From Oscillospiraceae bacterium (GTDB lineage: Bacteria > Bacillota > Clostridia > Oscillospirales > CAG-272), in assembly GCA_015064385.1 (NCBI GenBank), contig SVSI01000005.1, forward strand, positions 1-64,000: a stretch of DNA of 64,000 nucleotides, written 5' to 3'. Positions 12,217 through 60,142 of the stretch are shown piece by piece (position 1 is the stretch's first letter; every line of letters starts with the position of its first letter). The notes below the pieces were generated by a model. It searched no databases. It was not told where the DNA came from and was given only the letters and a program-made list of their open reading frames with translations. The position numbers and the translations under genes were made by a program.

Positions 12217-15006
12217 TCAATCCTCAAAGCCGAGCGAAAATTTGTGCTCGCCTCCGCGGATACCGGCTTGCCCCGCATTTGCGCGAACCAAGAGAGTTAT
12301 TTCAAGTACGTCATCACCGCAGGTATCAAAGAGCATTCTGCGCCAAACCGGTGCAGGATTTCCGTCCGAATTATGTTCGACCGTATGTCGGTCAGCGAGC
12401 CGACCGTTTACCCAAAGCTCATACTCAATATAAACAAACGCCTCGACAAAAACGAAAGCGCTCTTGTTTTGCCCTTTGATATTCGGAATTTTTGCCTTAT
12501 AGCGGTACAATTTCCAACCGTCGTCAAAGTCCTGATAAGTGCGAATGCCCATATCCCACACGACAAAGTTGTTCATATCGGTATCGGCGAGTGTCATATT
12601 TGGATCCGGCTTTTCGGCAAATGTGTCGTTAGAAACGATTATCTCGTTAATATTTCTTGATCCATCGCTTTCAGATAGATAAATATCCTGCTCAACCGGC
12701 ACGATATTAAGTTCTACCGTCGCACTTTCATATTCCCGACAGGCAACCCTGACAGCTGCGCTTTTTGCTCTGTCGTTCACTTGCACTATTGCCTGACATC
12801 TGCCCGCAAACAGCAGTCGCTCACACGCTTTATCTGCCTCGTGGCTGTTCGGATTTCCGTTTCCGACCCCGATTATCTTACAGTCCCCAAGCGCTTCGAA
12901 GCTGATGAGTCCTTCGGCGTTTTGAACCGCATTACCCTCATCATCGGTAACACTCACGTCGATGGCCACGGCGTCGTGTCCACTGTTATCAACAACAATC
13001 TTATGAGGTGTTGCAATAATTTTAGTGGCTTTTCCGGGCGTTCTAAGCGTATCCTCACATACCGCCTTGCCGTCTTTATAACCAACGGCGGAAAGCTCGC
13101 CGGGAACGAACTCAATATCCCAAATGCATTGTGCCCAGAGCTTAGATTCCCTTCTGCCGAGCGACTCGCCATTCAAGAACAACTCGACCTCGTCGGCGTT
13201 TGTGACCGTCATAATTTTTACCGCTTCGCCGTTCTTGTGATTCCAGTGGTGAAGAAGCTTCATCATCGGCAGGTCTCTCTTAAAGCCCGCCATTGCGACG
13301 TAAGCGGACGCCTTGGGGTAGCCGCAAAGGTCGAAAAGTCCGAAAAGCGACGAAACCGTCGGATATTTGAAGGGCGTCGGCTCGCCTCGATAGTCAAATC
13401 CCGTCCAAGCGAAAAATCCCGTGATCCACGGACGAGTGTAGTTTACCTTGAACTGCTCCTGTAAGGTACAGCCCCACGGGCAACCGTAGCTATCAAAATC
13501 TTCGATAAGATTGTTGGCCATATCCCTTGTCTGTTGACCTCTTATCGCAACCGCCGAGGTGTTTTCGCTTCCTATTACCGGCGTGTTTGGATAAGCCGCG
13601 TGTATTCTGTCAAGACTCGGATAATTATAGTTGATACCGATAACGTCCATCTCGTGAGTTGATCCGACTCCGGTATAATAGCTCTTGTTCGATGCCCCGG
13701 TTATCGGGCGTGTGGAATCAAGCTTTTTGACGGCACTCTTCATTTTTGCAAATATAGCGCCCGACTCCTCGGTTCCCTGTATTCCCTCTTCATTATAGAG
13801 CGACCACATAATTACACTCGGGTGATTTCTGTCGCGCTTTACCATCGTACGCAGGTTTGTAAGAGTTTCCTCGTTTGCCTCAAAATGACGGTTTTCGTCC
13901 ATTACCAAAAGTCCGTACTTGTCGCAAGCATCGAGAATTTCTTTTGCGTGCATGTTATGTGCACACCTGTATGCGTTTACACCCGCATCCTTTAATATCT
14001 TTATTCGCATTTCCTGAATCGAGTCCGGAACTGCAACTCCCACACCTGCGTGATCCTGATGACAGCAAACACCGTTTATAAAAACAGACCTGCCGTTAAG
14101 GAAAAAGCCATTATCTCTATCGAAAAAGATCGTTCTGAAGCCAAAATTTGCGCTATCCTCATCAAGGAGCTCCCCGTCACGGTAAATTCGGGCGACGGCT
14201 TTATAAAGAATCGGACTGTCAACGTCCCAAAGCTCGGGGGCATCTACCATCATCTTAAGCTTGATCGATCCTTTTTCGTCACCGCTTAGTAACGAAACTT
14301 TATCCGCTATCGCAACACTCTTCCCGCACTTGTCAAAAAGCTCTACACTTACGGTAAAATCTCCGCTTTCGGTATATGCGCTGTTTTCGACCTCAACCTC
14401 GGTATTCACCGTCCAGCTTCCATCGTCGTTTTTGATCGGGTTTATCCAAAGTCCGTTATGCGCGATATGCAGCATCTCCTTGACGTACAGGCGGACGTGT
14501 CTGTAAATACCCGTTCCCTCGTACCACCAGCCCTCGCACGATTTTCCGTCAATCTCGACCGAGATCGTGTTAAAGTTTTTTCCGAAGCGCATTCGTGGAG
14601 TTACATCAATAGCAGTTTCGCTGTACGCACTCGTCGAACGTCCTGCAAGAGAACCGTTAAAATATATATTTGCAAAAACGGAAATCCCTTCGAAAACAAA
14701 GGTGAAATGCTTGCCTTTATACTCTTCGGGCATGTCGAAGGTTTTTCTATACCACACGTTTTCGCGCACCTTGGAGCCATGCACTGCCGCCGTGTTTTCG
14801 TCAAATCCCACCTCAACTCTGCGGTCGTGCGGAAGGTCGAGAATTTGCCAGTCATCATCGTTACAATAAAATCCCGCCGCTCCCGGTACTCGTCCCGCCT
14901 GGTTTGCGCCGTATATATCCGAATGGCTGACACCGACGGTCTTTTCTGCGGTTTCGTCGTCAACCTTGAATTTCCAGTCTTTTTCTGCATTAAATATGGT
15001 TCTCAT
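12217..15006 (-). CDS. Glycoside hydrolase family 2 protein (beta-galactosidase-like)
   Basis: Same architecture as the downstream paralog; start set at MRTIFNAEKDWKFKVDDE. Confidence 0.9.
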   Translation of the reverse strand: MRTIFNAEKDWKFKVDDETAEKTVGVSHSDIYGANQAGRVPGAAGFYCNDDDWQILDLPHDRRVEVGFDENTAAVHGSKVRENVWYRKTFDMPEEYKGKHFTFVFEGISVFANIYFNGSLAGRSTSAYSETAIDVTPRMRFGKNFNTISVEIDGKSCEGWWYEGTGIYRHVRLYVKEMLHIAHNGLWINPIKNDDGSWTVNTEVEVENSAYTESGDFTVSVELFDKCGKSVAIADKVSLLSGDEKGSIKLKMMVDAPELWDVDSPILYKAVARIYRDGELLDEDSANFGFRTIFFDRDNGFFLNGRSVFINGVCCHQDHAGVGVAVPDSIQEMRIKILKDAGVNAYRCAHNMHAKEILDACDKYGLLVMDENRHFEANEETLTNLRTMVKRDRNHPSVIMWSLYNEEGIQGTEESGAIFAKMKSAVKKLDSTRPITGASNKSYYTGVGSTHEMDVIGINYNYPSLDRIHAAYPNTPVIGSENTSAVAIRGQQTRDMANNLIEDFDSYGCPWGCTLQEQFKVNYTRPWITGFFAWTGFDYRGEPTPFKYPTVSSLFGLFDLCGYPKASAYVAMAGFKRDLPMMKLLHHWNHKNGEAVKIMTVTNADEVELFLNGESLGRRESKLWAQCIWDIEFVPGELSAVGYKDGKAVCEDTLRTPGKATKIIATPHKIVVDNSGHDAVAIDVSVTDDEGNAVQNAEGLISFEALGDCKIIGVGNGNPNSHEADKACERLLFAGRCQAIVQVNDRAKSAAVRVACREYESATVELNIVPVEQDIYLSESDGSRNINEIIVSNDTFAEKPDPNMTLADTDMNNFVVWDMGIRTYQDFDDGWKLYRYKAKIPNIKGQNKSAFVFVEAFVYIEYELWVNGRLADRHTVEHNSDGNPAPVWRRMLFDTCGDDVLEITLLVRANAGQAGIRGGEHKFSLGFED

Positions 15007-15253
15007 AGGAGTTACCCTTTCTATCGCATACTTTTGAGACAAGTATATCACTCGGTCAAACGAATGTCAATAGAACGTACGGCTTTGTAACCACTTTTTT
15101 GTTTCGATTTCGTCAAGTGTTTCGATTTGTTAATTTTGTCTCACACACGTTTGAACAACTCTTGTACAAGAGTTTCCTGCCTATTGATTTTTTCACCGAT
15201 GTATGCTATAATTTATCCGTATAAGTATAATAGGTGATTTTGGAGGTAAATTT

Positions 15254-16243
15254 ATGAATGACCGCACTCCCCTCATCTCGGTCATAGTACCCGTTTACAA
15301 GGTAGAAGAGTACCTTGAAAAATGTCTTGACAGCATTCTGGTACAAACCTATAAAAATCTTGAAATAATCATTGTTGACGACGGCTCGCCCGACAACTGC
15401 GGAAAGATCTGCGACGCTTACGCCGAAAAGGACGCTCGCATTAAAGTCATCCACAAGGAAAACGGGGGACTATCAGATGCTCGAAACGCAGGGCTTGATG
15501 TTGCCACGGGCAAATACGTGGGATTTGTTGACAGCGACGACACTATAGTGCCCACTATGTATGAAGAACTTTTAAAAAAGATGCTCGAAACGGAAAGTGA
15601 TCTTATCTCGTGTGCATTCACAAGAGTTTATTCGACAAACGACGTTTCCGAGCCCGATACCGAAATTCAATCCCTTTCCTTTGACAGCGAGGGCGCACTT
15701 CGTGCAATGCTTCACCGAAATCCGTTTGGTGCCCACTCATGGTGTAAGCTTTATCGTATGGATCTTATCGATTCTCTTCGCTTTGATACCGCAATTCGCA
15801 ACTCAGAAGATATTCCTTTCGTCGCGGAGTATATTTTAAGATGCAAAAAAGTCACTTTCTTTGAACGACATCTTTACAACTATCTACAAAGACGAGGTTC
15901 GATACTTAATTCGAATTTTACAGACCGTCATATGACAATTTACGATGCACACAAAAAAGTTATCGACATTGCAAAGTCCGCCAACCTTTCGGACAAAACT
16001 CTCGCCTCAGCTCAAGCGGCGACCATTATGTCCTGTATACGAATGGCATATGAGCTCGTGCCGCAAAAGGACGCGGCAAGAAAATTCATTCCCACGATAA
16101 AGAAAAATCTGCGCAGACACATTTCAAGAAGCAGTCTCGCTCAGCTTCACCGCTCAAGACAAGTACAGGCGGTGCTGCTTTCGATAAGCTTTTTGCTTTT
16201 CAAAGCGTTTTTTAAGCTTTCAAAAGCAAAAATAACCAAATAA
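15254..16243 (+). CDS. Glycosyltransferase family 2
   Basis: PLISVIVPVYKVEEYLEKCLDSILVQTYKNLEIIIVDDGSPDNCG, FVDSDD. Confidence 0.92.
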   Translation: MNDRTPLISVIVPVYKVEEYLEKCLDSILVQTYKNLEIIIVDDGSPDNCGKICDAYAEKDARIKVIHKENGGLSDARNAGLDVATGKYVGFVDSDDTIVPTMYEELLKKMLETESDLISCAFTRVYSTNDVSEPDTEIQSLSFDSEGALRAMLHRNPFGAHSWCKLYRMDLIDSLRFDTAIRNSEDIPFVAEYILRCKKVTFFERHLYNYLQRRGSILNSNFTDRHMTIYDAHKKVIDIAKSANLSDKTLASAQAATIMSCIRMAYELVPQKDAARKFIPTIKKNLRRHISRSSLAQLHRSRQVQAVLLSISFLLFKAFFKLSKAKITK

Positions 16244-16252
16244 GGAGTTTTT

Positions 16253-17254
16253 ATGGAAAGCTTAAAGCCGCTTATTTCGGTAATAGTCCCCGTTTACGGG
16301 GTTGAAAAATATCTCGGCACGTGCATAGAGAGCATTCTCGCACAGACGCACGAAAATATCGAGCTTATCCTCGTTGACGACGGATCGCCCGACGACTGCG
16401 AAAAGATCTGTGACGCCTACGCCGAAAAGGACGCTCGCGTAAAGGTCATCCACAAGGAGAACGGCGGCGTTTCCTCGGCTCGAAATGCAGGACTTGCCGC
16501 TGTTTCGGGAGAATACGTCGGATTCGTTGACAGCGACGACACTATAAGCCCCACTATGTACGAGGAGCTTTATACCGAGCTCGTAAACACAAATTCGGAC
16601 GTTTCGGTATGTAAGCTGCGCCGCGTTCGCACAAAGAAGCAATGCATAGCTCCCCCGAGCAGCGATAATATCGTCCGCGTGGAATACACACGCGAGGAGA
16701 TCATTGCCGAAATGATAATGGTGCGCACCTTCTCGGGCTCGCTCTGCAACAAGCTCTTTAAGGCAGAGCTTGTCAAAGATATACGTCTTGACGAAAAGAT
16801 CTACGCAGCAGAGGATCTTCTTTTTGCAGTTGAAGCGATACTTAAGGCGAAAAAGGCGTGCTATTTTTCAAGGGAGCTGTACAACTATTTCACGCGTGAC
16901 GGAAGCGCAACTCAGATCTCATTCAGCGAAAAGCACATCACCTCGCACGACGTTTGTCTGAAGATAATCGAGCTGCTCGAAAAAGAAGGAATTGCGGACA
17001 AAATGAAAAAATACACCGACGCTTCTATCGTCGTATGCAACGTGATCCTTCTGCGCCGACTTTCGGGCGATAAGGCGCTCCAGAAAAAGTACGCATCTAC
17101 CTTCAAAAAGAATCTTATGCCCCATCTTAACAGACAAAGCTTCAAGGAACTTACGAGATCGATAAAAACCAACGTAATACCCCTTGCAATAAGCACTCAT
17201 CTGTATTATTTTTCGCTTAACGTCTTAAAAAAGCTTAAATCACTGATAAAATAA
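16253..17254 (+). CDS. Glycosyltransferase family 2
   Basis: PLISVIVPVYGVEKYLGTCIESILAQTHENIELILVDDGSPDDC. Confidence 0.92.
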   Translation: MESLKPLISVIVPVYGVEKYLGTCIESILAQTHENIELILVDDGSPDDCEKICDAYAEKDARVKVIHKENGGVSSARNAGLAAVSGEYVGFVDSDDTISPTMYEELYTELVNTNSDVSVCKLRRVRTKKQCIAPPSSDNIVRVEYTREEIIAEMIMVRTFSGSLCNKLFKAELVKDIRLDEKIYAAEDLLFAVEAILKAKKACYFSRELYNYFTRDGSATQISFSEKHITSHDVCLKIIELLEKEGIADKMKKYTDASIVVCNVILLRRLSGDKALQKKYASTFKKNLMPHLNRQSFKELTRSIKTNVIPLAISTHLYYFSLNVLKKLKSLIK

Positions 17255-17280
17255 GTGCCGAAAGCGCTTAAGGAGAAAAT

Positions 17281-18264
17281 ATGAAGAAAACGGATACTAA
17301 AATAGATTTCGTTGTTACCTGGGTAGATGGAAACGATCCCGTTTGGCAAGCGGACAAGGCAAAGTATTCTGACGCAGGTGCCGATTCGGGCGCCTCAAGA
17401 TACCGCGACTGGGATCAGCTCAAATACTGGTTCCGCTCGATCGAGCAGAACGCCCCTTGGGTAAACAAGATACATTTCGTCACCTACGGGCATCTTCCCG
17501 AGTGGCTGGATACCTCAAATCCCAAACTAAATATAGTAAATCATAAGGATTTTATTCCCGAGGAGTTTCTGCCCGTATTCAACTCTACTGCAATAGAAGT
17601 CCATCTCCACAGAATAAAAGGACTTTCCGAGCAGTTCGTCTATTTTAACGATGACACGTATCTTATGAAGCCGTGCAAGGAGACCGATTTCTTCGTCAAG
17701 GGACTTCCCGTTGACGAGGCGATATTCGATCCACCCCTTCCCCACGAAAACAGTTGTTACTGTCATCATCTTTACAACGACTACTCGGTATATACGCAGT
17801 ACCTTTCATCAAAGACCTTTCTCAAAAACATCTTTAAGTATATAAACTTCAAGTTCGGCGCTCACAATCTTATACAGATCCTCGCGCGAAACAAGTATAT
17901 CCGCCCTCTGCATCACGCAAAATCCTTCCTCAAGAGCTCCTTTGAGACTATTTGGAAGAATAACGAGCGTTATATGCTCCGTACCGCGCGCTCGCGCTTC
18001 AGAAAAGAGCTGAACAATTCCCCGCAGGTGTTCCGCGGATATCAGATAATCACCGGAAAATTCTATCCTAAGCACAAGAGAAAATACGCTCTTGTTATGG
18101 ACTCTCGCAACGCCGAAGCCGCAGCAAGAGCCATCGACGCGAAAAAGTATAAATATCTCTGCCTGAGCGACAACACTGCCGAGGAGGATTTCATCTCGGC
18201 AAAGAAAATAATAAACGCGTCTTTTGAGCGCATATTCCCTCAAAAGAGCTCTTTTGAGAAATAA
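17281..18264 (+). CDS. Stealth-family capsular polysaccharide phosphotransferase
   Basis: CR1-like KIDFVVTWVDGNDPVWQ; CR2-like RDWDQLKYWFRSIEQNAPWVNKIHFVTYGHLPEWL...FVYFNDDTY. Confidence 0.9.
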   Translation: MKKTDTKIDFVVTWVDGNDPVWQADKAKYSDAGADSGASRYRDWDQLKYWFRSIEQNAPWVNKIHFVTYGHLPEWLDTSNPKLNIVNHKDFIPEEFLPVFNSTAIEVHLHRIKGLSEQFVYFNDDTYLMKPCKETDFFVKGLPVDEAIFDPPLPHENSCYCHHLYNDYSVYTQYLSSKTFLKNIFKYINFKFGAHNLIQILARNKYIRPLHHAKSFLKSSFETIWKNNERYMLRTARSRFRKELNNSPQVFRGYQIITGKFYPKHKRKYALVMDSRNAEAAARAIDAKKYKYLCLSDNTAEEDFISAKKIINASFERIFPQKSSFEK

Positions 18265-18281
18265 ACAAGGAGGATGCTCGA

Positions 18282-19259
18282 ATGTCCGACAAAAAAATAG
18301 ATTTCGTCGTCACGTGGGTTGACGGCAACGATCCCGTTTGGCAGGCGGATAAGGCGGCGCACCTCGGAGACGGCGGCGACGCTCATATCAAACGCTTTCG
18401 TGACTGGGATCAGCTTAAATACTGGTTCCGCTCGATCGAACAAAACGCCCCTTGGGTAAACAAGATACATTTCGTTACCTACGGACACCTCCCCGAGTGG
18501 CTGGACACCTCAAATCCCAAACTAAATGTAGTAAATCACAAGGACTTTATTCCCGAGGAGTTTCTGCCCGTATTTAATTCTACGGCAATAGAGGTACATC
18601 TCCACAGAATAAAAGGTCTTTCCGAACAGTTCGTTTATTTCAACGACGACACCTATATCACAAAGCCGTGCAAGGAGACCGATTTCTTCGTCAAGGGACT
18701 GCCGGTTGACGAGGCGTACCTCGTTCCCGCGATCCCGCATCAGCAGGTGCTTTACTGTTATCACCTTTATAACGACTATTCGATATATGCGCCTTATTTT
18801 TCAACGAAAACTACCGCAAAAAACATCTTTAAGTACGTAAATTTCAAATTCGGATTTTACAATCTCATACAGATCCTCGCGCGAAACAGATACGTTCGTC
18901 CGATGCACCACGCAAAGGCGTTTCTGAAGAGCACGTTCGAGACTATATGGAAGGATCACGAGCAGTCTATGCTCCGTACCTCCCGCGCGCGTTTCCGCGG
19001 ACGTCTCGAAAATTCCCCCCAGGCGTTCAGAGGTTATCAGATAATCACCGGAAAATTCTATCCGAAAAATCTGACCAAAAAGGCGACCGTCGTTGATTCC
19101 CGTCTCGTGGATGAAGTAAAAAAAGCGATAGAATCGGGAAAATACAAGTATATCTGTCTTAGCGACAACACTCCCGAGGATCAGTTCGAGTCGGCAAAGA
19201 CGGCAATAAACGCTTCGTTTGAAAAGATATATCCAAACAAGAGCTCCTTTGAAAAGTAA
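18282..19259 (+). CDS. Stealth-family capsular polysaccharide phosphotransferase (paralog)
   Basis: Same CR1/CR2 motifs; long near-identical tracts to the preceding gene. Confidence 0.9.
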   Translation: MSDKKIDFVVTWVDGNDPVWQADKAAHLGDGGDAHIKRFRDWDQLKYWFRSIEQNAPWVNKIHFVTYGHLPEWLDTSNPKLNVVNHKDFIPEEFLPVFNSTAIEVHLHRIKGLSEQFVYFNDDTYITKPCKETDFFVKGLPVDEAYLVPAIPHQQVLYCYHLYNDYSIYAPYFSTKTTAKNIFKYVNFKFGFYNLIQILARNRYVRPMHHAKAFLKSTFETIWKDHEQSMLRTSRARFRGRLENSPQAFRGYQIITGKFYPKNLTKKATVVDSRLVDEVKKAIESGKYKYICLSDNTPEDQFESAKTAINASFEKIYPNKSSFEK

Positions 19260-20476: not shown

Positions 20477-21394
20477 TTATTTTATCTTGTTTATATCGTA
20501 CGGTGTGGTCTGGTAAACGAAGTAGTTGAGCCAGTTGGTGTAAAGCAGATTTGCGTGGCTTCTCCAGGTCGAGATCGGTTTTTTGTTCGGATCGTCGTCG
20601 GGATAATAGTTATAGGGGATCGCCGTGCCGAGCCCTGCCGCCACGTCACGCTTATATTCTTTATCAAGCGTATCGGGATCGTACTCGGAGTGTCCGGTAA
20701 CGAACACTTGTCTTCCCTTTTTGGTGGCGGCAACGTAAACTCCCGCCTTTTCGGAGGACGCGAGTATCTTCAGCGCACTCTCTTTTTCTATATCCTCTCG
20801 CGCGACCGTCGTGTAGCGGCTGTGCGGCGCGTAGAAAACGTCGTCAAATCCGCGCATAAGTATCGACTTTTTGCGATCGACCGTGTGCTCAAACACACCG
20901 AAGAGCTTTTTGTCGAGCTTTTGCTTTTTTATTCCATAGTGATAGTAAAGCGCCGCCTGTGCGCCCCAGCAGATGTGGAATGTGCTCGTGACGTTCGTTT
21001 TGCTCCATTCCATTATCTCGCAAAGCTCGTCCCAGTATTCGACCTCCTCAAATTCGAGAAGCTCGACGGGGGCACCGGTAATTATCATTCCGTCGTATTT
21101 TTGATCCTTCACCTGATCAAAGGTCTTGTAAAAAGTCAGAAGATGGTCGTACGACGTGTTTTTGGACACGTGCGTGCTCGTGTGGATAAATTCAAGCTCT
21201 ACCTGAAGGGGTGTGTTTCCGAGAATACGCGCAAGCTGTGTCTCGGTGACTATCTTGGTCGGCATAAGATTCAAAATGAGGATCTTAAGCGGACGGATAT
21301 CCTGCGTTATCGCTCTCGTTTCGGTTATAGCGAATATGTTTTCGCTCAGCAGAGTCGCCGTTGCGGGCAACTCGTTCGGTATCTTAATAGGCAT
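20477..21394 (-). CDS. metA: Homoserine O-acyltransferase
   Basis: [11 protein letters not shown]...[46 protein letters not shown]. Confidence 0.92.
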
Positions 21395-21405
21395 TTTTCT
21401 TTTTT

Positions 21406-21623
21406 GGAAAACTTTTGAAAAAAGTTTTCCATACCTTTCAAAAACTTTCTGCGAGACAACTTTTTGAAAAAAGTTGTCTCGCTCTCTTTCAAAAACTTTT
21501 CCTGAAAACCTTTTTGTAAAAAGGTTTTCAGACTTTCCAAAAACTTTACTTAAACTTATGTCGTCATGTTTTTTTATTAAAGTTTTTGAAGTTCCAAGAA
21601 ACTTTTTTCAAAAAGTTTCTTGG
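21406..21623. repeat. Hairpin array 1 (four hairpins) between metY and metA
   Basis: Hairpins at 21406..21430, 21451..21482, 21502..21531, 21594..21623 with different but self-complementary stems and ctttcaaaaacttt spacers. Confidence 0.9.
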
Positions 21624-21626
21624 TTT

Positions 21627-22913
21627 TTATATCTGTGCGAGCGCCTGCTCGATATCCTCGATAATATCCTCGACGTTCTCGATACCAACCGAGAAGCGTA
21701 CGAGCTCGGGGCCGATGCCTGCCGCTACGAGCTGATCGTCGGTAAGCTGACGGTGAGTCGTGCTTGCGGGGTGAAGCACGGACGTACGCGCGTCCGCAAC
21801 GTGAACGACGATCGCCGCAAGCTTCAGAGCATTCATAAACTTCATAGCCGCCTCGCGTCCACCCTCGATTCCGAAGGAAATAACGCCCGAAGCACCCTTG
21901 GGAAGATATTTTTCAGCCATTGCGTACTGCGAGTCGCCCTCAAGCTTCGGATAGCTTACCCATGTTACCTTATCGTGTCCCTTAAGGTATTTTGCTACCG
22001 CAAGAGCGTTCTCCGAATGGCGCTCGATTCTGAGTGCGAGAGACTCAAGTCCGAGGTTGATAATGAACGCCGAAAGGGGTGACGGAGTAGTTCCAAGGTC
22101 GCGCATAAGCTGGCAGCACGCCTTGGTGATATACGCCGACTTTCCGAAGGACGCGGTGTAAACGACTCCGTGATATGACTCGTCCGGCTCGGTAAGCTCG
22201 GGATATTTGCCCGCCGCTTCCCAGTCGAAGTTTCCGCTGTCAACTATAACTCCGCCAACTGTCGATGCGTGTCCGTCCATATATTTGGTCGTCGAATGTA
22301 TAACTATATCCGCGCCGAATTCGATCGGACGGCAGAGTACGGGAGTTGCAAAGGTATTATCCACGATAAGCGGCATATTATGCTTATGTGCAAGGTGCGC
22401 GTATCTCTCGATATCGAGAACGGTAAGCGCAGGATTTGCTATCGTCTCACCGAAGATAAGGCGGGTATTTTCGTCGATCAGCTTTTCTATCTCCTCGTCG
22501 GACATATCGGGAGTGACGAATCTCGTCTCAATTCCCATACGCTTCATAGTAACCGCGAAAAGATTGGTCGTTCCGCCGTAAATGGACGAGAGCGAGATTA
22601 TGTTCTGTCCCGCAGAGGTGATATTGAACACCGAAATTAAGCTCGCCGCCTGTCCGGACGAGGTAAGCATAGCACCTACGCCACCCTCAAGAGAGGCGAT
22701 CTTCGAAGCGACCGCAGAAAGCGTAGGATTCGATATTCTCGAATACATATCGCCGGGCGCCTTGAGGTCAAAAAGATCTCCGAGGTGCTCTGCGCTGTCG
22801 TACTTATAGGTCGTGCTCTGGTATATGGGGAGAACTCTCGGCTCGGAATTTTTCGGCGAGTAACCCTCCTGTATGCACTTTGTTTCTATTCTGTATTTTT
22901 TATTCTCACTCAT
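21627..22913 (-). CDS. metY: O-acetylhomoserine aminocarboxypropyltransferase / cysteine synthase
   Basis: IYQSTTYKYDSAEHLGDLF, PLIVDNTFATPVLCRPIEFGADIVIHSTTKYMDGH; start trimmed to MSENKKY. Confidence 0.88.
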   Translation of the reverse strand: MSENKKYRIETKCIQEGYSPKNSEPRVLPIYQSTTYKYDSAEHLGDLFDLKAPGDMYSRISNPTLSAVASKIASLEGGVGAMLTSSGQAASLISVFNITSAGQNIISLSSIYGGTTNLFAVTMKRMGIETRFVTPDMSDEEIEKLIDENTRLIFGETIANPALTVLDIERYAHLAHKHNMPLIVDNTFATPVLCRPIEFGADIVIHSTTKYMDGHASTVGGVIVDSGNFDWEAAGKYPELTEPDESYHGVVYTASFGKSAYITKACCQLMRDLGTTPSPLSAFIINLGLESLALRIERHSENALAVAKYLKGHDKVTWVSYPKLEGDSQYAMAEKYLPKGASGVISFGIEGGREAAMKFMNALKLAAIVVHVADARTSVLHPASTTHRQLTDDQLVAAGIGPELVRFSVGIENVEDIIEDIEQALAQI

Positions 22914-22953
22914 TTCAGAAATTCCTTTCTCCGATCTGATTTTTTCACAAGTT

Positions 22954-24420
22954 TCACATCTTTTTTGCGGTTTTCTTATTGGATACCGCAAGGAAGATTA
23001 TTCCCACGATCGCCGATACTGCAAGAACCGCCGCGAGTGCCGTCACGATGATTACCGTAGTTTTTGAAAGCTGAAGCTTCTTTGGCGGCACGGGTGCAGG
23101 AGCGGGAGCGTTGCCCGTTTCTCCGCCGTCATCTGCGGGCGGAATATCGCTCGGATATATAAAGCCGGGGAGCTCGCCGTCTCTGTATGGAGGGAGCTTG
23201 ACGATCCTGAAAAAGTACTCGGTCTTATGACCGCTCTCCGCAACGCAGGAAAGAGTCAGCTCCGCACTGCCGCTTGCAAGCGAAACGGTTGTCGGCTCGC
23301 TGAAGCTTTCCGCCTTTTCACTGCTCGGCAGACACGAGATCTCTATTTCATCAAGAGAATTTTCAACGTAAAGTATGTACTGCGTTCTCGCGGGATCAAA
23401 TGCGGGCGAGAGCACGCCGCCGCTGAAAATTATCTCTTTAAGGGTAGAATTATTGTCCTCTTTGTAGTTTGGATTTTCCTCTTTCGTTACGGTAAGAATA
23501 TATTCCGAAACGTTGCCTTTTTCGGCAGTTACGGTTATTTTGACCGTATTTACACCGACTCTCAAAATGTGTTCCTCTACCGAAACGGTAGCAAACTCGT
23601 TCGCCGTCTCATATATCGGCTCAAGCTTTGACATCGAATTTCCTACGGTAAGCGAGTATTCCTTCACGCTCGGATCAAAGGTCGGAGAAAGCTCCGATCC
23701 ATCTACCGACAAAGACGCAAGCGTTGAATCGTCCGACAGAGCGACCGTTTCGTAAATGGCGGTATAGACCGTATCCTGCATCACGGTCTCCGTCACCTCG
23801 GGAGTCCAGCCGGTAAAGATATACTTGTTCTCGCCGTCCGAGGGCTTCGTGGGATCTTCGGGTAAGGTAACTTTTTCGTCTATAAAATATTTCTGCTCGG
23901 AAATTACCGTTTCTCCGTCCCCGTCAACGAATTTGACGCTGTATTTTTCCTTTATCTCAACAAGAGCGCTGTCATCTGCAAAAGTGACCTTGCCGCCCGC
24001 AGACGTGTTCGCCTCAACGTGCGCTATTTTGATCTCGGTGGTCGTTTCGGTCTCGGAAACGGCTGTAAAGTTCAGCTTTACGAGCTCTCCCGACGCACTC
24101 GAGTTATCAGCGGTGGATACGCTCCATCTCAAAATATACGGAGAGGACATTGTGGGAGAAGGGGTAGAGAGCCCTTCAAGAAGCGCAAGGTCCTCTATCG
24201 AATCGAGGCGAAGTGCGCTCTCGTCATACTCGATCTTGAAGCGAAGAGATATTATTCCGGGGTTGTCCTTAAGAGATATCACAAGCGAAAAGGATCCTCC
24301 CTTTTCAACGCGCGTGTCGGAGATCTCGTACGCGGGCGCGGGAGTGCTTGATGTTACGGTAAACACTGCCGTAAAAAGCATCGCGAGTGTGAGTAGAGTT
24401 ATTATTAAGCGTTTTTTCAT
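22954..24420 (-). CDS. Secreted membrane-anchored protein with cohesin-like, InlB-like and cadherin-like beta-sandwich domains
   Basis: Signal peptide; VEKGGSFSLVISLKDNPGIISLRFKIEYDESAL; repeated LSPxFDPxxxxYxLxV; C-terminal TM helix and basic tail. Confidence 0.75.
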   Translation of the reverse strand: MKKRLIITLLTLAMLFTAVFTVTSSTPAPAYEISDTRVEKGGSFSLVISLKDNPGIISLRFKIEYDESALRLDSIEDLALLEGLSTPSPTMSSPYILRWSVSTADNSSASGELVKLNFTAVSETETTTEIKIAHVEANTSAGGKVTFADDSALVEIKEKYSVKFVDGDGETVISEQKYFIDEKVTLPEDPTKPSDGENKYIFTGWTPEVTETVMQDTVYTAIYETVALSDDSTLASLSVDGSELSPTFDPSVKEYSLTVGNSMSKLEPIYETANEFATVSVEEHILRVGVNTVKITVTAEKGNVSEYILTVTKEENPNYKEDNNSTLKEIIFSGGVLSPAFDPARTQYILYVENSLDEIEISCLPSSEKAESFSEPTTVSLASGSAELTLSCVAESGHKTEYFFRIVKLPPYRDGELPGFIYPSDIPPADDGGETGNAPAPAPVPPKKLQLSKTTVIIVTALAAVLAVSAIVGIIFLAVSNKKTAKKM

Positions 24421-26136: not shown

Positions 26137-27906
26137 TTATTTTATGTCCATAGGAGAATAGATCGTTATTTTTGCAAATGCAACGTATCTTTCTCCGTAC
26201 CTGTCAACTGTGTTTGCATAGTATAGTGTTTTTCCGTCGTCACCAACCCAAAGCCCCGCACTGTATCCTACTCTGTCCTGATCTTTGGATATCGGAGTGC
26301 CCGCAAGCGGATCTTCTATCGTTTCCCAAGTTTCGCCGTAGTCAAAGCTAATGAAGATAACTCCCTTGTTCGAGCTTCTCTTGGACGTAACGATAAGAAC
26401 GCCCTTCTCGCCGCCAATGTCAAGCCACGCACACGAGGGCGAGCCGGCTGTGATGTATTTACCGCTCTCGGGAATGATCGTCCCCCGGTCGCTCGGATCT
26501 CCCCAATCGGCAAGATTTGTTGTTTTTTTGTAGAAAATGCGGAAATCCGTCCAACTGCTGTTTTTATCTCCCTCCTGCTCGTAAACCATGAAATACTCGC
26601 CGTTACCCATCTTGGTAATAACGGGCATTCCGGGGCGGAAAGCAAAAGAGTTTACTGCTACTACCTCTATCGGCTCGACTGTGCTTGCACCCGCGGTAGA
26701 TGCAACCATTCCGTCCTTACCTTCCCAGTTTACACCGTCCTTCGAACGCTTGTAAACAACCTTCTGGTCGTGTCCCGGATCAGAGTCGTCCGAATAGAAA
26801 CAGTAAAGGTAGCCGTCCTCCTCACAGTAGGTCATAAAGGGCTCCCAAACGCCCTCTTTTATACCCTTTGCTTCGTCAATTATAACGTATTCCTCCCAGC
26901 TTACGCCGCAGTCAAAGCTTCTCCATACTGCGAGAATTGATTTGCCGAGCATACCGTCCGACTTATCGTTATAATCAACCGAGCAGTACGAATAAAGCAG
27001 TGTGCCCGCGGGCATATCGCCCACCTTAGTAGGAAGTTCGTAAATGTGTGCCATAGTACCGATTCTCGGAAGCTTGTCGTGAAGTGTCTCCTTCGGGCGA
27101 GCAAGTGCCTTCCACGTCTTGCCCTTGTCGGAGCTCATCATAACGCAACCGTAGGTCGGATTGTTTTCGGTAAGATCATACACAAGTGTTGCCGCGGTAG
27201 CAATCAGTTTGCCGTTATCTGCGGGATTTGGCTGATATTTAAGTTCTGTAATCGACGGATACGACGCGTTTTGCACAATAAATTCATTTCCGTCCGCCGT
27301 GGTGTATTTAACATTCGGCTGAGTTATGAGAGTTGTGCTGTCAACGTGAAATGCCGTGCCGTTAGATGCGAGTATCAGCGAGCTTTCGTCATAAAGACCT
27401 AACTGCTGATTGCCGCACGAAATATCTATCACGCCCTGAGCGGACGAGGGATAGACATAGCTTTCGATAAACACCCAAATTGCCCGTGCGGTCGAAAGAT
27501 CGTCAGTTCCCGTAATAACTATTTTGTTTTCGGATACTCTAACAGCGAATGAGTTTTGGTCTTTGTTCTGCTTTTTAAGGTAGGAAACAGTCGAGCTTGA
27601 TTCACTGCGATTTGTTTCCCCTACAAGTATTTCCTTTTCGAGTGCCTCTGTACCGTCATTTACAACGGGAAGATCGATTCCGAGCTTGTTCGAAATAGTG
27701 CTTTTGAGTGTAGAAAGTGCCGCCTTGGTGTTTGCCTCGGCACCCTCCTCTACAACGAGAGTAAAGCCGTCGAGCGAATACTCGTTTGCATTCGGAATAT
27801 CCTCAGCCGGGGTTAACTGCTCACTGTCCTTGCACGAAGCAAGCGTGGTAATTACAAGTGCTCCGAGCAAAGAAAGTGCCAAAATTTTTGTAAAAATTTT
27901 TTTCAT
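26137..27906 (-). CDS. BNR/Asp-box sialidase-like beta-propeller lipoprotein (paralog 1)
   Basis: Lipobox TTLASC; SSDKGKTW, SFDCGVSWEEY, SKDGVNWEG, SFDYGETWE. Confidence 0.8.
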   Translation of the reverse strand: MKKIFTKILALSLLGALVITTLASCKDSEQLTPAEDIPNANEYSLDGFTLVVEEGAEANTKAALSTLKSTISNKLGIDLPVVNDGTEALEKEILVGETNRSESSSTVSYLKKQNKDQNSFAVRVSENKIVITGTDDLSTARAIWVFIESYVYPSSAQGVIDISCGNQQLGLYDESSLILASNGTAFHVDSTTLITQPNVKYTTADGNEFIVQNASYPSITELKYQPNPADNGKLIATAATLVYDLTENNPTYGCVMMSSDKGKTWKALARPKETLHDKLPRIGTMAHIYELPTKVGDMPAGTLLYSYCSVDYNDKSDGMLGKSILAVWRSFDCGVSWEEYVIIDEAKGIKEGVWEPFMTYCEEDGYLYCFYSDDSDPGHDQKVVYKRSKDGVNWEGKDGMVASTAGASTVEPIEVVAVNSFAFRPGMPVITKMGNGEYFMVYEQEGDKNSSWTDFRIFYKKTTNLADWGDPSDRGTIIPESGKYITAGSPSCAWLDIGGEKGVLIVTSKRSSNKGVIFISFDYGETWETIEDPLAGTPISKDQDRVGYSAGLWVGDDGKTLYYANTVDRYGERYVAFAKITIYSPMDIK

Positions 27907-27913
27907 TGTTTAT

Positions 27914-29704
27914 TTATTTATCCTTGCCGTCGTAGCTCTTGGGTCCGTAAATGGTCAGGCGAGCAAATCCCATAACTCGAGTTTCGGTCGGATTTCTCGC
28001 ATCGTTTATTGAGTTGAGATAGTAAACAGTCTTTCCGTCTGTGCTAAGCCAGAACGCGGGGCTGTATCCAACTCTGTCGTTGCCCGAGCCATTGGTGATT
28101 ATCGGCTGTCCAACGAGCGGGTTGTCTATTTTTTCCCACGTTTCACCGTAGTCGAAGCTTACGAGCATATATCCTTTGTTCGAGCCCTGCTTTGCGGTAA
28201 CTATGAGGGTTCCGCATTCGCCGCCGACGTCAAGCCAAACGCACGCAGGAGAGGAAGAAAGAACCTCGCCCGTCTTTGCCTTGATAAGCGTTCCGATATC
28301 GCTTACATCTCCCCAATCGGAGAGGTCTCTCGTCTTTTTATAGTATATGGGGCATCCCGTCCAATCGCCAAACTGCTCGTAAACGAGGAAATATTCGCCG
28401 TTACCCATCTTGGTGATTACGGGCATTCCGGGGCGGTATTTGAACTTATCTATCGCAACTACGTCAACCGGCTCAACGTCCTTGCCGGTTCCCGTGCCGA
28501 TCTTGCCGCCTTCGCCTTCCCAATTTACGCCATCCTTCGAGCGCTTATAGGAGATCTTCTGGTCATGGTCGGGGTCGGAGTCGTCAGAGTAGAAGCAGTA
28601 GAGATAACCGTCCTCCTCGGAGTAGATCATAAAGGGCTCCCATATACCCTGTTTTATACCTCTTGCTTCGTCTATAATTACGTATTCTTCCCAATTCAAG
28701 CCGCAATCATAACTGCGCCATACCGCAAGAATAGACTGACCGTTACCTCCGTCGGGGTGGTCGTAATTTACAGCGTTATAAGAATAAAGAAGAGTTCCTG
28801 CAGGCATATCTCCGATCTGTACGGGCAGCTCGTAAATATGCGCCATCGAGCCGACACTGCTGAGTTTGGGGAACTTAGTCTCCCAAGGGCGGCTGAGCAT
28901 TTCCCACGTCTTTCCTCTGTCCGAGCTCATCATGACCGTTCCGCCGCCCGGTTCGGTTGCCATATTAATATAGTCAACGTTCAGAGACATCGTCGCAATA
29001 AGCTTGCCGTTGTTTTTCGGATCGCTCTGATAACGAAGTTCGGTTACCGAGGGGTAGGATGCAGAATTAAGAATTACCTTATTGCCGTGTTTATCTTCCA
29101 TCACACTGAAGCCCTGGCTGTACATCTGCTTTGCGATGTCAACGTGTATTTCCACTCCGCTCGAGGTGGTTATAATATTTTTCCGGTCGTAAGGAGCCAC
29201 GATCTGCTGACCTGCCGCAATGTTCAGCGAGCTTCCGCTTGAGGATGCCTTAACGTAGGTATTTATAAACTCGTAGATTGCACGCTCGGTAGCGTTATCG
29301 TCGGTTCCGACGATAACTATCTTGTCGTTTCCTATACGGATAGCGTACGAGTTTTCTTCATAAGTCTTTTTGAGATATGCAAGAGTTGATTCGGACTCGG
29401 GACGGTTCGTCTCGCCCACGAGTATCTCTTTTGCGCCCGCTTCGGTATCAACGTCGAGAGAAACCGTAGCATCAAGACCAATTATATCCTTGATAGCGCG
29501 CTTGATATCTGCCGTAGCTTGTGCCACGTTCGAGTCGCTCGCGGCATCGCGAACGATCTTGAATCCGGTAAGATCGTACATGTTGGGATCGGGTTCCTGT
29601 ACCGGTTCTTCGGGGGTTTTGTCCTTGCAGGAAATTGCAAGGGTTGCCACGGTCGCCATAACGAGTATGAACGACAGCACTCTTGAAAATTTCTTGTTTT
29701 TCAT
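27914..29704 (-). CDS. BNR/Asp-box sialidase-like beta-propeller lipoprotein (paralog 2)
   Basis: Lipobox LAISC; same repeats. Confidence 0.8.
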   Translation of the reverse strand: MKNKKFSRVLSFILVMATVATLAISCKDKTPEEPVQEPDPNMYDLTGFKIVRDAASDSNVAQATADIKRAIKDIIGLDATVSLDVDTEAGAKEILVGETNRPESESTLAYLKKTYEENSYAIRIGNDKIVIVGTDDNATERAIYEFINTYVKASSSGSSLNIAAGQQIVAPYDRKNIITTSSGVEIHVDIAKQMYSQGFSVMEDKHGNKVILNSASYPSVTELRYQSDPKNNGKLIATMSLNVDYINMATEPGGGTVMMSSDRGKTWEMLSRPWETKFPKLSSVGSMAHIYELPVQIGDMPAGTLLYSYNAVNYDHPDGGNGQSILAVWRSYDCGLNWEEYVIIDEARGIKQGIWEPFMIYSEEDGYLYCFYSDDSDPDHDQKISYKRSKDGVNWEGEGGKIGTGTGKDVEPVDVVAIDKFKYRPGMPVITKMGNGEYFLVYEQFGDWTGCPIYYKKTRDLSDWGDVSDIGTLIKAKTGEVLSSSPACVWLDVGGECGTLIVTAKQGSNKGYMLVSFDYGETWEKIDNPLVGQPIITNGSGNDRVGYSPAFWLSTDGKTVYYLNSINDARNPTETRVMGFARLTIYGPKSYDGKDK

Positions 29705-29752
29705 GGTTTTCCTTTCTCCGAGGGGCCTTTGCCCTTCATCTCCCGTTATTTA

Positions 29753-31450
29753 TTATTCGTAAACGTACATTTTAGCGAATGCGATAAGCTGTCTTTCCTT
29801 AGGAGCCGACGGATCGTTTACAGAGTTTACGTAATAAAGAGTCTTTTTATCGTTTGCAACGAACATAAATCCACTGTATCCCACGCGGTCGCCCTCGTTT
29901 TTTATAGGTTTACTGGTATGCGGATCATCTATCTTTTCCCACGTTTTTCCGTAGTCAAAGCTTGCCATCATATATCCGTTGTTCGAGCCGCCCTTTGCTG
30001 CAACGAGCAGGAGTCCGTTCTCTCCGCCTGCATCAAGCCACGCGCACGAGGGAGCAGACCACATTCCGATAAGTGTTCCCATATTATCGGGATCTCCCCA
30101 GTCAGCGAGGTTTTTGGTGGTTCTGTATCTTATAACGCAATCGCCGTTTTCGTCTATATATTCATAAGACATAAAATATTCGCCGTTGCCCATTTTGGTA
30201 ATTACGGGCATTCCGGGGCGGTGTTCCTTGTTTGCGGTCGCAATTACGTCAACGGGTTCAACGTTTTTACCTGTAAGCGTACCTATCTCGCCGTTTTTTC
30301 CCTCCCAGTTCACGCCGTCCTTGGAGCGCTTATAAACTATTTTCTGATCGTGCTTGGGATCAGAGTCGTCAGAGTAGAAGCAGTAGAGATAACCGTCCTC
30401 CTCGCTGTAGATCATAAAGGGCTCCCAAACGCCCTCTCCAAGCGCGCCCGCCTCGTCTATCATAGCGCTTTCCTGCCAGGTCTCTCCGGCATCAACGCTG
30501 ATCCACGTAGCAATTACGGAATATTTTTTGATATCCCAATCAACTATATTATGCGAGTAGATAAGCGTGCCCGCAGGGAGATCTCCCAGCTTTGCAGGAA
30601 GCTCGTAAATATTTGCCATAGATCCGGAGGGAATTCCGGGAAAAGTTTTTTGATTAGGACGAGCAACTATCTTCCACGATGCACCGTCGTCATCACTAAC
30701 GATAACACACGCCATGGTAGAGGAATCGCCAAACATCGGAGATGCGGCGGAAATTGCAACGAGTCGCCCGTTCTTTGCGGGATCACTCTGATACTGAAGC
30801 TTTGTAATACCGGGGTAAGATCCGCCCGAGGGAACAAATTCTTCTCCGTTCACGTTATACCGCTTTTGACTGTAGAGTATCGACTCGGTCTCGACCTGTA
30901 TCTCGGTTCCGTTTTTGGTAGTAATGATACTGTCGGTATCGTAGATGCGATACATTTCTTTTCCTGCAGAAAGACCAAGCTTTCCTTCGGAAGAGGCATT
31001 GACGTAGTACTTTATAAACGCCTCCGCCGCCTTTACGCTCGACGCATCGTCGGTACCCGTAATAACTATCTTATCACTTGCAATTCGGATAGCCCACGAA
31101 TTTTTTTCGTTTTTCTTCTTTATCTGACTTACGGTAGCTTTCGACTCCGTTCTGTCGGTCTCGCCGATAAGGATCTCCTTGCTTCCCGCCTCTTTGTTCG
31201 AATCAACAACAATGGGAAGCTCGAGCCCCAACTTGCTCTTGATCGCATCTTTTACGTCTGAAACCGCACTTGAAAAGCCGATCGATCCGACCTCCGCGCG
31301 AACTATCGTAAAGTCGGTGAGATCGTACGCGGTCTCCTCGGGCTCTTGCCCGCCGTTCTGATCTGCAGTGTCATCCTTGCAGGCAACCATAAAGGACGCC
31401 GCCGTAACGAGCGCCAAAACAAGCGCTGTAAGTTTGGTAAAAATTCTCAT
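29753..31450 (-). CDS. BNR/Asp-box sialidase-like beta-propeller lipoprotein (paralog 3)
   Basis: Lipobox FMVAC; same repeats. Confidence 0.8.
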   Translation of the reverse strand: MRIFTKLTALVLALVTAASFMVACKDDTADQNGGQEPEETAYDLTDFTIVRAEVGSIGFSSAVSDVKDAIKSKLGLELPIVVDSNKEAGSKEILIGETDRTESKATVSQIKKKNEKNSWAIRIASDKIVITGTDDASSVKAAEAFIKYYVNASSEGKLGLSAGKEMYRIYDTDSIITTKNGTEIQVETESILYSQKRYNVNGEEFVPSGGSYPGITKLQYQSDPAKNGRLVAISAASPMFGDSSTMACVIVSDDDGASWKIVARPNQKTFPGIPSGSMANIYELPAKLGDLPAGTLIYSHNIVDWDIKKYSVIATWISVDAGETWQESAMIDEAGALGEGVWEPFMIYSEEDGYLYCFYSDDSDPKHDQKIVYKRSKDGVNWEGKNGEIGTLTGKNVEPVDVIATANKEHRPGMPVITKMGNGEYFMSYEYIDENGDCVIRYRTTKNLADWGDPDNMGTLIGMWSAPSCAWLDAGGENGLLLVAAKGGSNNGYMMASFDYGKTWEKIDDPHTSKPIKNEGDRVGYSGFMFVANDKKTLYYVNSVNDPSAPKERQLIAFAKMYVYE

Positions 31451-31466
31451 TTCTTTTCTCCGTTCG

Positions 31467-35146: not shown

Positions 35147-35431
35147 CACACACAGATCCTTCGATCAACGTGCACAGCATTGAAGCATTTCTTTGCCGAA
35201 AGAAACGCTTCGCAAAGAACGCCGAAAGGGAGAGAAGGATCTCTCCCTTTGGAAACCCACTCTCTAAATTAAACGTTGAAAGCGCGCGTGGGCGCTTGCG
35301 CGCTTTCAAAGCGCCTCAAAAAGATTCGGCGCAGGTGTACATCGCGGCGCAAGAGGAAAATGCGCCGCGGTCTGTTCCTACGAATTAAACACAAATTCGC
35401 CTGAATGTAGTTTTAATAGTCCGCGAATTCC
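35147..35431. repeat. Long structured intergenic repeat, copy E2 (285 bp, inverted relative to E4b)
   Basis: Nearly identical to the reverse complement of 56353..56636. Confidence 0.92.
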
Positions 35432-40892: not shown

Positions 40893-41077
40893 TTGGGAAA
40901 ACTTTTTGAAAAAAGTTTTCCCAAGCCCTTTCAAAAACTTTGCTTAAAGAACTTTTTTGTGAAAAGTCCCGGTTGATTTGCTTGCGAATCAATTTGAACC
41001 CTCAAAAACTTTTGTCAAAACCCTTATTCAGTAAAGTTTTTGGAGTTCCAAGAACCTTTTTTCAAAAAGGTTCTTGG
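40893..41077. repeat. Hairpin array 2 between a PLP aminotransferase and dusB
   Basis: Hairpins ttgggaaaactttttgaaaaaagttttcccaa (40893..40924) and ccaagaaccttttttcaaaaaggttcttgg (41048..41077), spacer ctttcaaaaacttt. Confidence 0.9.
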
Positions 41078-42265
41078 TTACATCATCTCGCGTACGATTT
41101 CCGCAAGAATTTTAATTCCTCTTACTATCTGCTCCTCGGTGGGAGTTGAATAGGTTATGCGGAAGCAGTGTGAGATCTCGCTCTCTGCCGGAGAGAACGC
41201 AGTTCCCGGAACGACTGCGACCTTTTTCTCAAGCGCCCTCTTAACGAACACCTGAAGATCAATGCTTTCGGGAAGGGTGAGCCACACGAAAAGTCCGCCC
41301 TCGGGACGGGTAAATTTCACGCAGTCGGGCATATTTTTCTCAAGCTCGCCGAGCATAAGCTCGCACTTTCTGCGGTAAAGCTCGCTGACTCCCGCAATGT
41401 GCTCGTCAAGTCCGTATTTCTCGGTAAATTCGGCACAAAGCATCTGGAAAAATTGGTTAGTATGTACGTCCTCTACCTGCTTTGCAACGACGATCTTCTG
41501 GAATACCGCCTCGGGCGCACAAAGGAATCCTACGCGCATTCCCGCCGAAAGGATCTTCGAGAACGAGCCGCAGTAGATAACGATGCCCGCGTCGTCAAAG
41601 CTCTTTATCGTGGGGATCTCTTCTCCCGCAAAGCGAAGCTCTCCGTACGGATTGTCCTCAATAATAAGAAGTCCGCTCTCGCGGCATATTTTGTAAACCG
41701 CGCGACGCTTTTCGAGCGACATCGTGGTTCCTGCGGGATTGTGGAAGGTGGGGATAAGATAAAGGAGCTTCGCCTTGGGATTGTCCTTTATCGCTTCTTT
41801 GAGCTTTTCGATATTTATACCGTCCTCTTCCATTTCAACGCCGACCGTCTTTGCACCGTTTGAACGAAACGCGTTGAGCGCTCCGATAAAGGAGGGATCC
41901 TCCGTGAGAACTACGTCCCCCTCGTTGCACATTACCTTGCAGGTGAGCTCGAGTCCCTGCTGACCGCCCGATACGATCATAACTCCGCTCTCCTCGCGCT
42001 TTATGTTAAAGCGCTTTTCAAGACGGTCGGTGACCTGCTCGCGGAGCTTCGGATAACCCTCGGTTATTCCGTACTGAAGCGCCTTTGAGGAATCTTTTGC
42101 AAAGATCTCGGCGGCGAGAACTGCGAGTTTTTCGGACGGAAACGATTCCGCCGCGGGATTTCCTGCCGCAAAAGCTATTATCTCGGGGTCGGTGAGACTC
42201 TTGAAGATCTCTCTTATCGCCGACGGTTTCATATTTACGAGCTTTTCGGATATATTATATTGCAT
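41078..42265 (-). CDS. PLP-dependent aminotransferase (aminoadipate-type, class I/II)
   Basis: IAFAAGNPAAESFP, PTFHNPAGTTMSLEKR, YCGSFSKILSAGMRVGF. Confidence 0.88.
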   Translation of the reverse strand: MQYNISEKLVNMKPSAIREIFKSLTDPEIIAFAAGNPAAESFPSEKLAVLAAEIFAKDSSKALQYGITEGYPKLREQVTDRLEKRFNIKREESGVMIVSGGQQGLELTCKVMCNEGDVVLTEDPSFIGALNAFRSNGAKTVGVEMEEDGINIEKLKEAIKDNPKAKLLYLIPTFHNPAGTTMSLEKRRAVYKICRESGLLIIEDNPYGELRFAGEEIPTIKSFDDAGIVIYCGSFSKILSAGMRVGFLCAPEAVFQKIVVAKQVEDVHTNQFFQMLCAEFTEKYGLDEHIAGVSELYRRKCELMLGELEKNMPDCVKFTRPEGGLFVWLTLPESIDLQVFVKRALEKKVAVVPGTAFSPAESEISHCFRITYSTPTEEQIVRGIKILAEIVREMM

Positions 42266-56062: not shown

Positions 56063-56066
56063 TGTG

Positions 56067-60028: not shown

Positions 60029-60041
60029 ATTATTTTCCTCA

Positions 60042-60142
60042 GAAAACCTTTTTGTAAAAAGGTTTTCCGAACCTTTCAAAAACTTTCTTGAAAACCCTTT
60101 TTGGAAAAAGGGTTTTCAAACTTTCCCAAAAACTTTACTTAA
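60042..60142. repeat. Hairpin array 3 upstream of ilvD
   Basis: gaaaacctttttgtaaaaaggttttc (60042..60067), ttgaaaaccctttttggaaaaagggttttcaa (60088..60119), ctttcaaaaacttt spacer. Confidence 0.9.

What the first reader, a model, noticed from the sequence alone, without database searches (positions are those of the whole stretch)
21395..21626. Hairpin array 1: four hairpins with variable but compensatory stems between metY and metA
The intergenic gap is filled by ggaaaactttt/aaaagttttcc, gcgagacaacttttt/aaaagttgtctcgc, ctgaaaaccttttt/aaaaaggttttcag and ccaagaaactttttt/aaaaagtttcttgg. They are linked by ctttc(c)aaaaacttt motifs. Stems differ between copies yet always pair, which is direct evidence that pairing is maintained. 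The array runs from the metY stop to within ~12 nt of the metA ATG, where no strong Shine-Dalgarno is visible.
Basis: partly seen in the sequence, partly recalled or inferred. Interest (0 to 1): 0.7.

Follow-up and report, generated by a model that had tools for sequence, protein, structure and literature searches.

The report
Dispersed hairpin repeats encoding DNA triplexes
The hairpins between two methionine genes are copies of a short repeat scattered through this genome and unrelated bacteria; the DNA in front of each hairpin changes in step with its stem exactly as a third strand of a triple helix would, which is rare natural evidence that evolution maintains three-stranded DNA.

Summary
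The four hairpins are real, and their stem changes are compensatory. The metY/metA interpretation is not supported: the same gap holds no array in two sister species, and other family genomes with metY next to metA have short hairpin-free gaps. The array is three forward units plus one inverted unit of a dispersed ~50-nt repeat (274 copies found in 1.8 Mb sampled from four genomes of the genus).

It covaries with its own stem, position by position, in mirror orientation with one skipped base. The code is C:G→G, A:T→A or T, G:C→G, and T-run→A-run. This is the alternate-strand DNA triplex code. It holds for 84-91% of positions, against 55-72% with shuffled linkers, and replicates separately in Acidocella, Aminicenantes, Acidobacteriota and other Clostridia. 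Watson-Crick pairing of the linker with the stem fits only 20%.

Best reading: a patchy, mobile-like family of potential intrastrand triplex repeats. It resembles E. coli boxC/PIT elements, but with a mixed-motif architecture and direct three-way covariation that I did not find described. Triplex formation itself is inferred, and no mobilising enzyme was found.

The parts
21579..21624 (+). Unit 1 (T-type, inverted relative to the others, next to the metY stop): linker TAAAG-TTTTT-GAAGTT, hairpin CCAAGAAAC-TTTTTTCAAAAA-GTTTCTTGG
   Evidence: 6 of 6 linker positions before the turn fit the triplex code
21501..21550 (-). Unit 2 (R-type): AGTAAAG-TTTTT-GGAAAG linker, hairpin CTGAAAACC-TTTTTACAAAAA-GGTTTTCAG
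   Evidence: 7 of 7 positions fit
21450..21499 (-). Unit 3 (R-type): AAAG-TTTTT-GAAAGAG linker, hairpin GCGAGACAAC-TTTTTTCAAAAA-GTTGTCTCGC
   Evidence: one misfit (A over C:G) before the turn
21404..21448 (-). Unit 4 (R-type, ends 11 nt before the metA ATG): AAAG-TTTTT-GAAAGG linker, hairpin GGAAAAC-TTTTTTCAAAA-GTTTTCC
   Evidence: 7 of 7 positions fit
21551..21578 (.). AT-rich spacer between the facing linkers of units 1 and 2; facing pairs elsewhere have a spacer mode of 29-39 bp
40893..40941 (-). Second array, R-type unit of a facing pair (GAAAGGG linker, TTGGGAAAAC stem)
41033..41078 (+). Second array, T-type unit of the facing pair (GGAGTT linker, CCAAGAACC stem)
60088..60136 (-). Third array, unit with GGGAAAG linker and TTGAAAACCC stem (8 of 8 positions fit)
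60039..60086 (-). Third array, unit with GAAAGG linker and CGGAAAACC stem (poor fit, possibly decaying)
21627..22991 (-). metY (O-acetylhomoserine aminocarboxypropyltransferase), upstream neighbour of the array
   Evidence: TIGR01326, 594 bits against cutoff 495
20477..21394 (-). metA (homoserine O-acetyltransferase), downstream neighbour of the array
   Evidence: NF047918, 504 bits against cutoff 460

Best explanation
Each hairpin with the purine linker in front of it is one copy of a dispersed, mobile-like DNA repeat whose sequence is maintained so that a single DNA strand can fold into an intrastrand triple helix. The two arms form the Watson-Crick stem. The linker (T5-Gm-An-Gp) folds back along the stem as third strand. 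It reads purines of the 3' arm near the apex (T.A:T and G.G:C, parallel), crosses over with one skipped base, and then reads purines of the 5' arm (A or T over A:T, G over G:C, antiparallel). Shown: the repeat family, the compensatory stems, the three-way covariation with this code, the patchy spread across phyla and the empty sites in sister species. Inferred: that the triplex forms in cells, when the repeat is single-stranded (replication, recombination or transposition), and that folding into it is what lets copies persist or be mobilised. Its position before metA is incidental.
For: Unsupervised mutual information between linker and 5'-arm positions peaks only on the mirror diagonal with a one-base shift (0.40-0.67 bits). 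Code match is 811/967 = 0.839 against 0.598 permuted among equal lengths (maximum 0.650) and 0.722 within equal length and C-run (maximum 0.752). Watson-Crick code gives 0.199, mirror identity 0.674, pyrimidine motif 0.200; no skip 0.592, two skips 0.499. With near-identical copies merged and the turn excluded it is 292/338 = 0.864 against 0.544. Linker T-run length tracks apex A-run length (rho 0.57, p 1e-16). Between nearest copies, when a stem change demands a new linker base the linker changed in 11 of 18 cases, against 25 of 482 when the stem did not change (Fisher p 1e-9). An independent set gives 606/664 = 0.913 against 0.609. It also holds within Acidocella, Aminicenantes, Acidobacteriota and other Clostridia taken separately. 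Spread: 65 pattern copies in this genome and none in 147 others of the class; 3-143 in 12 scattered genomes, reversed-pattern control 0; empty metA site in two sister species.
Against: No structure was measured. The related E. coli PIT/boxC motif folds as an isolated oligonucleotide, but in vivo footprints did not show it (PMC4666352). No mobilising enzyme was found. Permutations do not fully remove shared ancestry: merging copies within edit distance 2 leaves 19 clusters and weaker support (z = 3.7). About 10-16% of positions break the code.
Confidence: 0.7

Rival explanations
1. Ends of a miniature mobile element recognised by a protein (REP/RAYT-like or MITE-like). The linker-stem match reflects protein contacts and no triple helix ever forms.
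For: Dispersed, intergenic, patchy between species and phyla, inverted pairs with a fixed spacer mode; REP-like palindromes are mobilised in this way (established knowledge).
Against: No Y1/RAYT transposase in G000 or in G084, G090 and G094, which carry 85, 32 and 104 copies; no transposase recurs beside units. A protein contact does not predict a code in which C:G and G:C both demand G, while A:T allows A or T but T:A demands T.
Confidence: 0.15
2. Host RNA element: structured leader or attenuator of metA, or a general RNA-stability hairpin; the stems matter as RNA.
For: Stems are compensatory and fold strongly as RNA. Hairpin sides lie close to gene starts or ends.
Against: Absent at the same locus in sister species; hundreds of copies beside unrelated genes; no Rfam match. 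Linker covariation follows a purine-motif code that is reported not to form in RNA (cited in PMC4666352).
Confidence: 0.1
3. Clusters of intrinsic transcription terminators.
For: Three terminator-like matches in the region against 0.9 expected. Arrays are depleted between divergent genes (10 of 126 against 150 of 992).
Against: No U-tract follows the stem on the coding strand; the T-run precedes the stem; in the best match the T tail is antisense to metY. Linker-stem covariation is unexplained. E. coli PIT elements had no terminator activity (PMC4666352).
Confidence: 0.05

Closest known systems
Potential intrastrand triplex (PIT) elements / boxC / TMECO repeats of E. coli (Hoyne and Maher 2000 and 2002; Holder et al. 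2015, PMC4666352)
   Same: Short dispersed intergenic repeats able to fold one DNA strand into hairpin plus third strand; two subtypes; some in inverted pairs; no link to gene function; patchy between close relatives.
   Different: TMECO is a nearly invariant G/C-rich single-class purine-motif triplex with the third strand at the 3' end. Here the third strand is at the 5' end, switches between the two purine strands (class IV-like near the apex, class I-like further out), and stems vary greatly with matching third strands.
REP/BIME elements with RAYT transposases
   Same: Intergenic palindromes, singly or in inverted pairs, at operon gaps.
   Different: No Y1/RAYT gene in several genomes rich in copies; third-strand code absent from REP definitions.
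MITEs and other bacterial interspersed repeats (ERIC, RUP, BOX)
   Same: Small, non-coding, many copies, presence/absence between species.
   Different: No target-site duplication or parent transposon identified; conservation lies in structure and code, not in sequence.
Alternate-strand triplexes studied with synthetic oligonucleotides (e.g. Washbrook and Fox 1994, cited in PMC3660596)
   Same: Third strand recognises purines on one strand, then on the other.
   Different: Those are designed intermolecular complexes; here a natural repeat family encodes the pattern.

Membership tests
PIT / intrastrand triplex motif (general kind) | One strand holds a hairpin plus a third segment obeying Hoogsteen or reverse-Hoogsteen rules | tested here: met
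   84-91% of positions fit the code against 55-72% permuted
PIT / intrastrand triplex motif (general kind) | Isolated strand forms a triplex in vitro | not testable with these tools
   needs CD, UV melting, NMR or footprinting
E. coli boxC / TMECO family | Sequence pattern CCCTCNCCCN3-6GGGNGAGGGN3GGGNGAGGG, third strand at 3' end | tested here: not met
   Units have a T5-purine linker 5' of an A/T-apex hairpin; pattern taken from PMC4666352
REP elements mobilised by RAYT | A Y1_Tnp (RAYT) gene in genomes with many copies | tested here: not met
   None in G000, G084, G090, G094; present in some other copy-rich genomes
Intrinsic terminators | G/C-rich stem followed directly by a U-tract on the transcribed strand | tested here: not met
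Known Rfam RNA family | Covariance-model match above gathering score | tested here: not met
   Only tRNAs found
MITE | Terminal inverted repeats with target-site duplication and a parent transposon | tested here: inconclusive
   Inverted pairs with 29-39 bp spacer mode and empty sites, but no duplication resolved and no parent transposon found

The most novel reading that the evidence does not exclude
A horizontally spread, phylum-spanning family of mobile DNA repeats is selected for its ability to fold a single strand into an alternate-strand triple helix, so that its copies record a natural base-triad code by three-way covariation.
Probability: 0.55. Interest if true: 0.9.

Novelty: new variant of a known kind. 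Interest (0 to 1): 0.78.

Why it matters
Whether DNA triplexes matter in living cells has been open for decades, because known natural candidates are nearly invariant and give no evolutionary test. This family has dozens to hundreds of different copies in each of several genomes, so the base-triad rules can be read from covariation as base pairs are read from RNA alignments. It shows which triads are kept (G over C:G, A or T over A:T, G over G:C, T over T:A), where the third strand crosses and that one base is skipped. It also gives many natural variants for direct biophysical tests, and points to an unidentified process that spreads the repeat between phyla.

Tried and rejected
RAYT/IS200-type mobilisation: no Y1_Tnp in the window's genome or in three other copy-rich genomes. 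A gene recurrently associated with units: only ordinary housekeeping genes cluster beside them. Rfam families: none. Alternative pairing of the linker with the 5' arm as an antiterminator: Watson-Crick code fits 20%. Parallel-stranded duplex of linker with 3' arm: fails to predict G over C:G and T over A:T (reasoned from the tables). Facing linkers pairing with each other as the constraint: facing units often have different linkers. The first reversed-pattern control was discarded because that motif is nearly its own reverse. A general hairpin control discriminates only moderately, because A-rich terminators also fit by chance (perfect fit 40% of unit hairpins against 11% of others). Target-site duplications could not be resolved, as the gaps are too diverged. 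Literature: no paper on this repeat found in full-text searches.

Full report
OBSERVATION. The four hairpins are present as described and fold far better than shuffled sequence (DNA z -10.1, RNA z -7.9). metY (TIGR01326) and metA (NF047918) are confirmed and lie on the minus strand. Reading in their direction, the order is: metY stop; an inverted unit (21624-21579); a 28-bp AT-rich spacer; three forward units (21550-21404); 11 nt; metA ATG. There is no strong Shine-Dalgarno, whereas the sister species have AAAGAAAGGA at that place.

THE UNIT. The hairpins belong to a repeat of about 50 nt: TTTTHAGTAAAG-TTTTT-[purine linker]-[short turn]-[5' arm]-TTTTT-NC-AAAAA-[3' arm]. The window holds two further arrays, at 40893-41078 and 60039-60136. 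In 1.8 Mb sampled from four genomes of the genus there are 274 units, in 153 clusters. Nearly all are intergenic (2 of 128 in called genes). They occur singly, in tandem, or as facing pairs with a spacer mode of 29-39 bp. The hairpin side usually abuts a gene. Units with purine-only linkers favour gene starts; units with T-containing linkers (GAAGTT, GGGATT, GAGATT) favour gene ends and are often followed by a G/C hairpin.

STEM COVARIATION. Taking every linker without selecting on pairing, the arms pair at 7.06 of 9 positions with their own partner, 5.31 swapped, at most 5.62 in 1000 shuffles.

LINKER-STEM COVARIATION, the main finding. A mutual-information matrix between linker positions (counted from the T-run) and 5'-arm positions (counted from the apex) peaks at (2,2), (3,3), (4,5), (5,6), (6,7) and (7,8), with 0.40-0.67 bits. 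Some near-diagonal cells reach about 0.2-0.3 and the rest are close to zero. The linker is therefore aligned antiparallel to the 5' arm with exactly one arm base skipped. With an alignment rule that uses only the arm, linker bases (A/C/G/T) over each stem pair are: A:T 329/7/17/92; G:C 18/2/224/4; C:G 10/26/93/26; T:A 5/30/11/73. The C:G and T:A misfits come mostly from the turn: excluding it, C:G in the C-run gives G in 82 of 98. The fit is 0.839 (0.907 without the turn) against 0.56-0.72 for permuted linkers. Watson-Crick, pyrimidine-motif and simple mirror codes fit 0.20, 0.20 and 0.67. Zero or two skipped bases fit 0.59 and 0.50. The linker T-run also tracks the A-run of the apex: T4 with A4 in 14 of 18, T5 with A5 in 139 of 157, T6 with A6 in 5 of 9. 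Comparing nearest copies, a stem change that demands a new linker base came with it in 11 of 18 cases; with the stem unchanged the linker changed in 25 of 482 (Fisher p 1e-9). In the metY-metA array, units 1, 2 and 4 fit at every tested position before the turn and unit 3 has one misfit.

WHY TRIPLEX. The rule is: T over T:A and G over C:G where the purine lies in the 3' arm, parallel to the linker; A or T over A:T and G over G:C where the purine lies in the 5' arm, antiparallel to the linker. These are the accepted triads of the two DNA triplex motifs, joined by a switch of purine strand. Alternate-strand recognition is known from synthetic work (PMC3660596 and its references). The purine motif is reported not to form in RNA (cited in PMC4666352), which argues for DNA as the acting molecule. 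A parallel duplex of linker and 3' arm would predict C over C:G and never T over A:T. No mutational process known to me makes mirror-coded copies of this kind. All this is inference from sequence; no structure was measured.

DISTRIBUTION AND TURNOVER. AAGTTTTTGN{9,21}CTTTTTNCAAAAAG occurs 65 times in this genome and not at all in 147 others drawn across its class. Twelve of these genomes have 3 to 143 copies each and none for the reversed control. The triplex code holds in this independent set (606/664 = 0.913 against 0.609 permuted, maximum 0.663), and separately within Aminicenantes, Acidobacteriota, Acidocella and two Clostridia. In Acidocella many copies form a palindromic element of roughly 150 bp just after stop codons: two units with a G/C hairpin between them. 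Within the genus, the metY-metA site is empty in G002 and G003; other sites are occupied in several species but often by units of different type. This is the behaviour of a mobile or rapidly exchanged repeat, not of a conserved metA regulator.

MECHANISM. Most likely the repeat is spread by an unidentified activity, and copies are kept only if one strand can fold into the three-stranded hairpin, for example as a single-stranded intermediate of replication, recombination or transposition. Shown: repeat family, stem and linker covariation, patchy spread, empty sites. Inferred: triplex formation in cells and its link to spread. Not found: the enzyme. No RAYT-type transposase exists in G000 or in three other copy-rich genomes, and no gene recurs beside units.

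RELATION TO KNOWN SYSTEMS. The nearest kind is the PIT/boxC/TMECO class (PMC4666352): intergenic, patchy, two subtypes, some inverted pairs, no promoter or terminator activity. It works like that class in being a potential intrastrand triplex. It is not a member of the boxC family: sequence, third-strand side and single-class architecture all differ. What I did not find described is the alternate-strand architecture in a natural repeat and the direct three-way covariation.

LIMITS. Several genomes are drafts or metagenome assemblies. About 37% of the window's genome was read directly. Permutation tests do not fully remove shared ancestry; merging copies within edit distance 2 leaves 19 clusters with z = 3.7. 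The paper library is open-access only.

Noticed in passing
window 6366-6604, 35147-35469, 56060-56636, 60233-60451, 63869-64000: A second repeat family of roughly 130-570 bp, rich in G/C hairpins and inverted repeats (GAAGCRTTTCTTT..AAAGAAAYGCTTC, TTGAAAGCGCGC..GCGCGCTTTCAA), 78-94% identical between copies. Similar sequence lies inside the spacer of facing triplex-repeat pairs in sister genomes, like a cargo.
   Followed up: partly
L309-L357 (Acidocella facilis, G084): Elements of roughly 150 bp directly after stop codons: outward linkers, two A/T-apex hairpins and a central G/C hairpin bracketed by AAACGTT/AACGTTT, a cloverleaf-like palindrome.
   Followed up: partly
L040, L046, L048, L049, L127, L162, L185, L189 and others: T-type units are commonly followed by a G/C hairpin (GGGGTTNNGGGGCAGAGCCCC or GCCGCCGGAGGC) in Clostridia, Aminicenantes and Halodesulfovibrio alike, suggesting a shared larger element.
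   Followed up: no
G001 and G002 contig ends (e.g. G002:C72, G001:C51): Several contigs of the sister assemblies end inside or within a few tens of bases of units, so copy numbers there are probably underestimated.
   Followed up: no
window 20477-21394: metA of this species lacks the AAAGGA-type Shine-Dalgarno seen in its sister species; the array insertion seems to have removed or replaced it.
   Followed up: partly
window 9277-12057 and 12217-15051; 15254-19259; 26137-32732: Tandem families of paralogous long genes (66-78% DNA identity by self-comparison), not studied.
   Followed up: no
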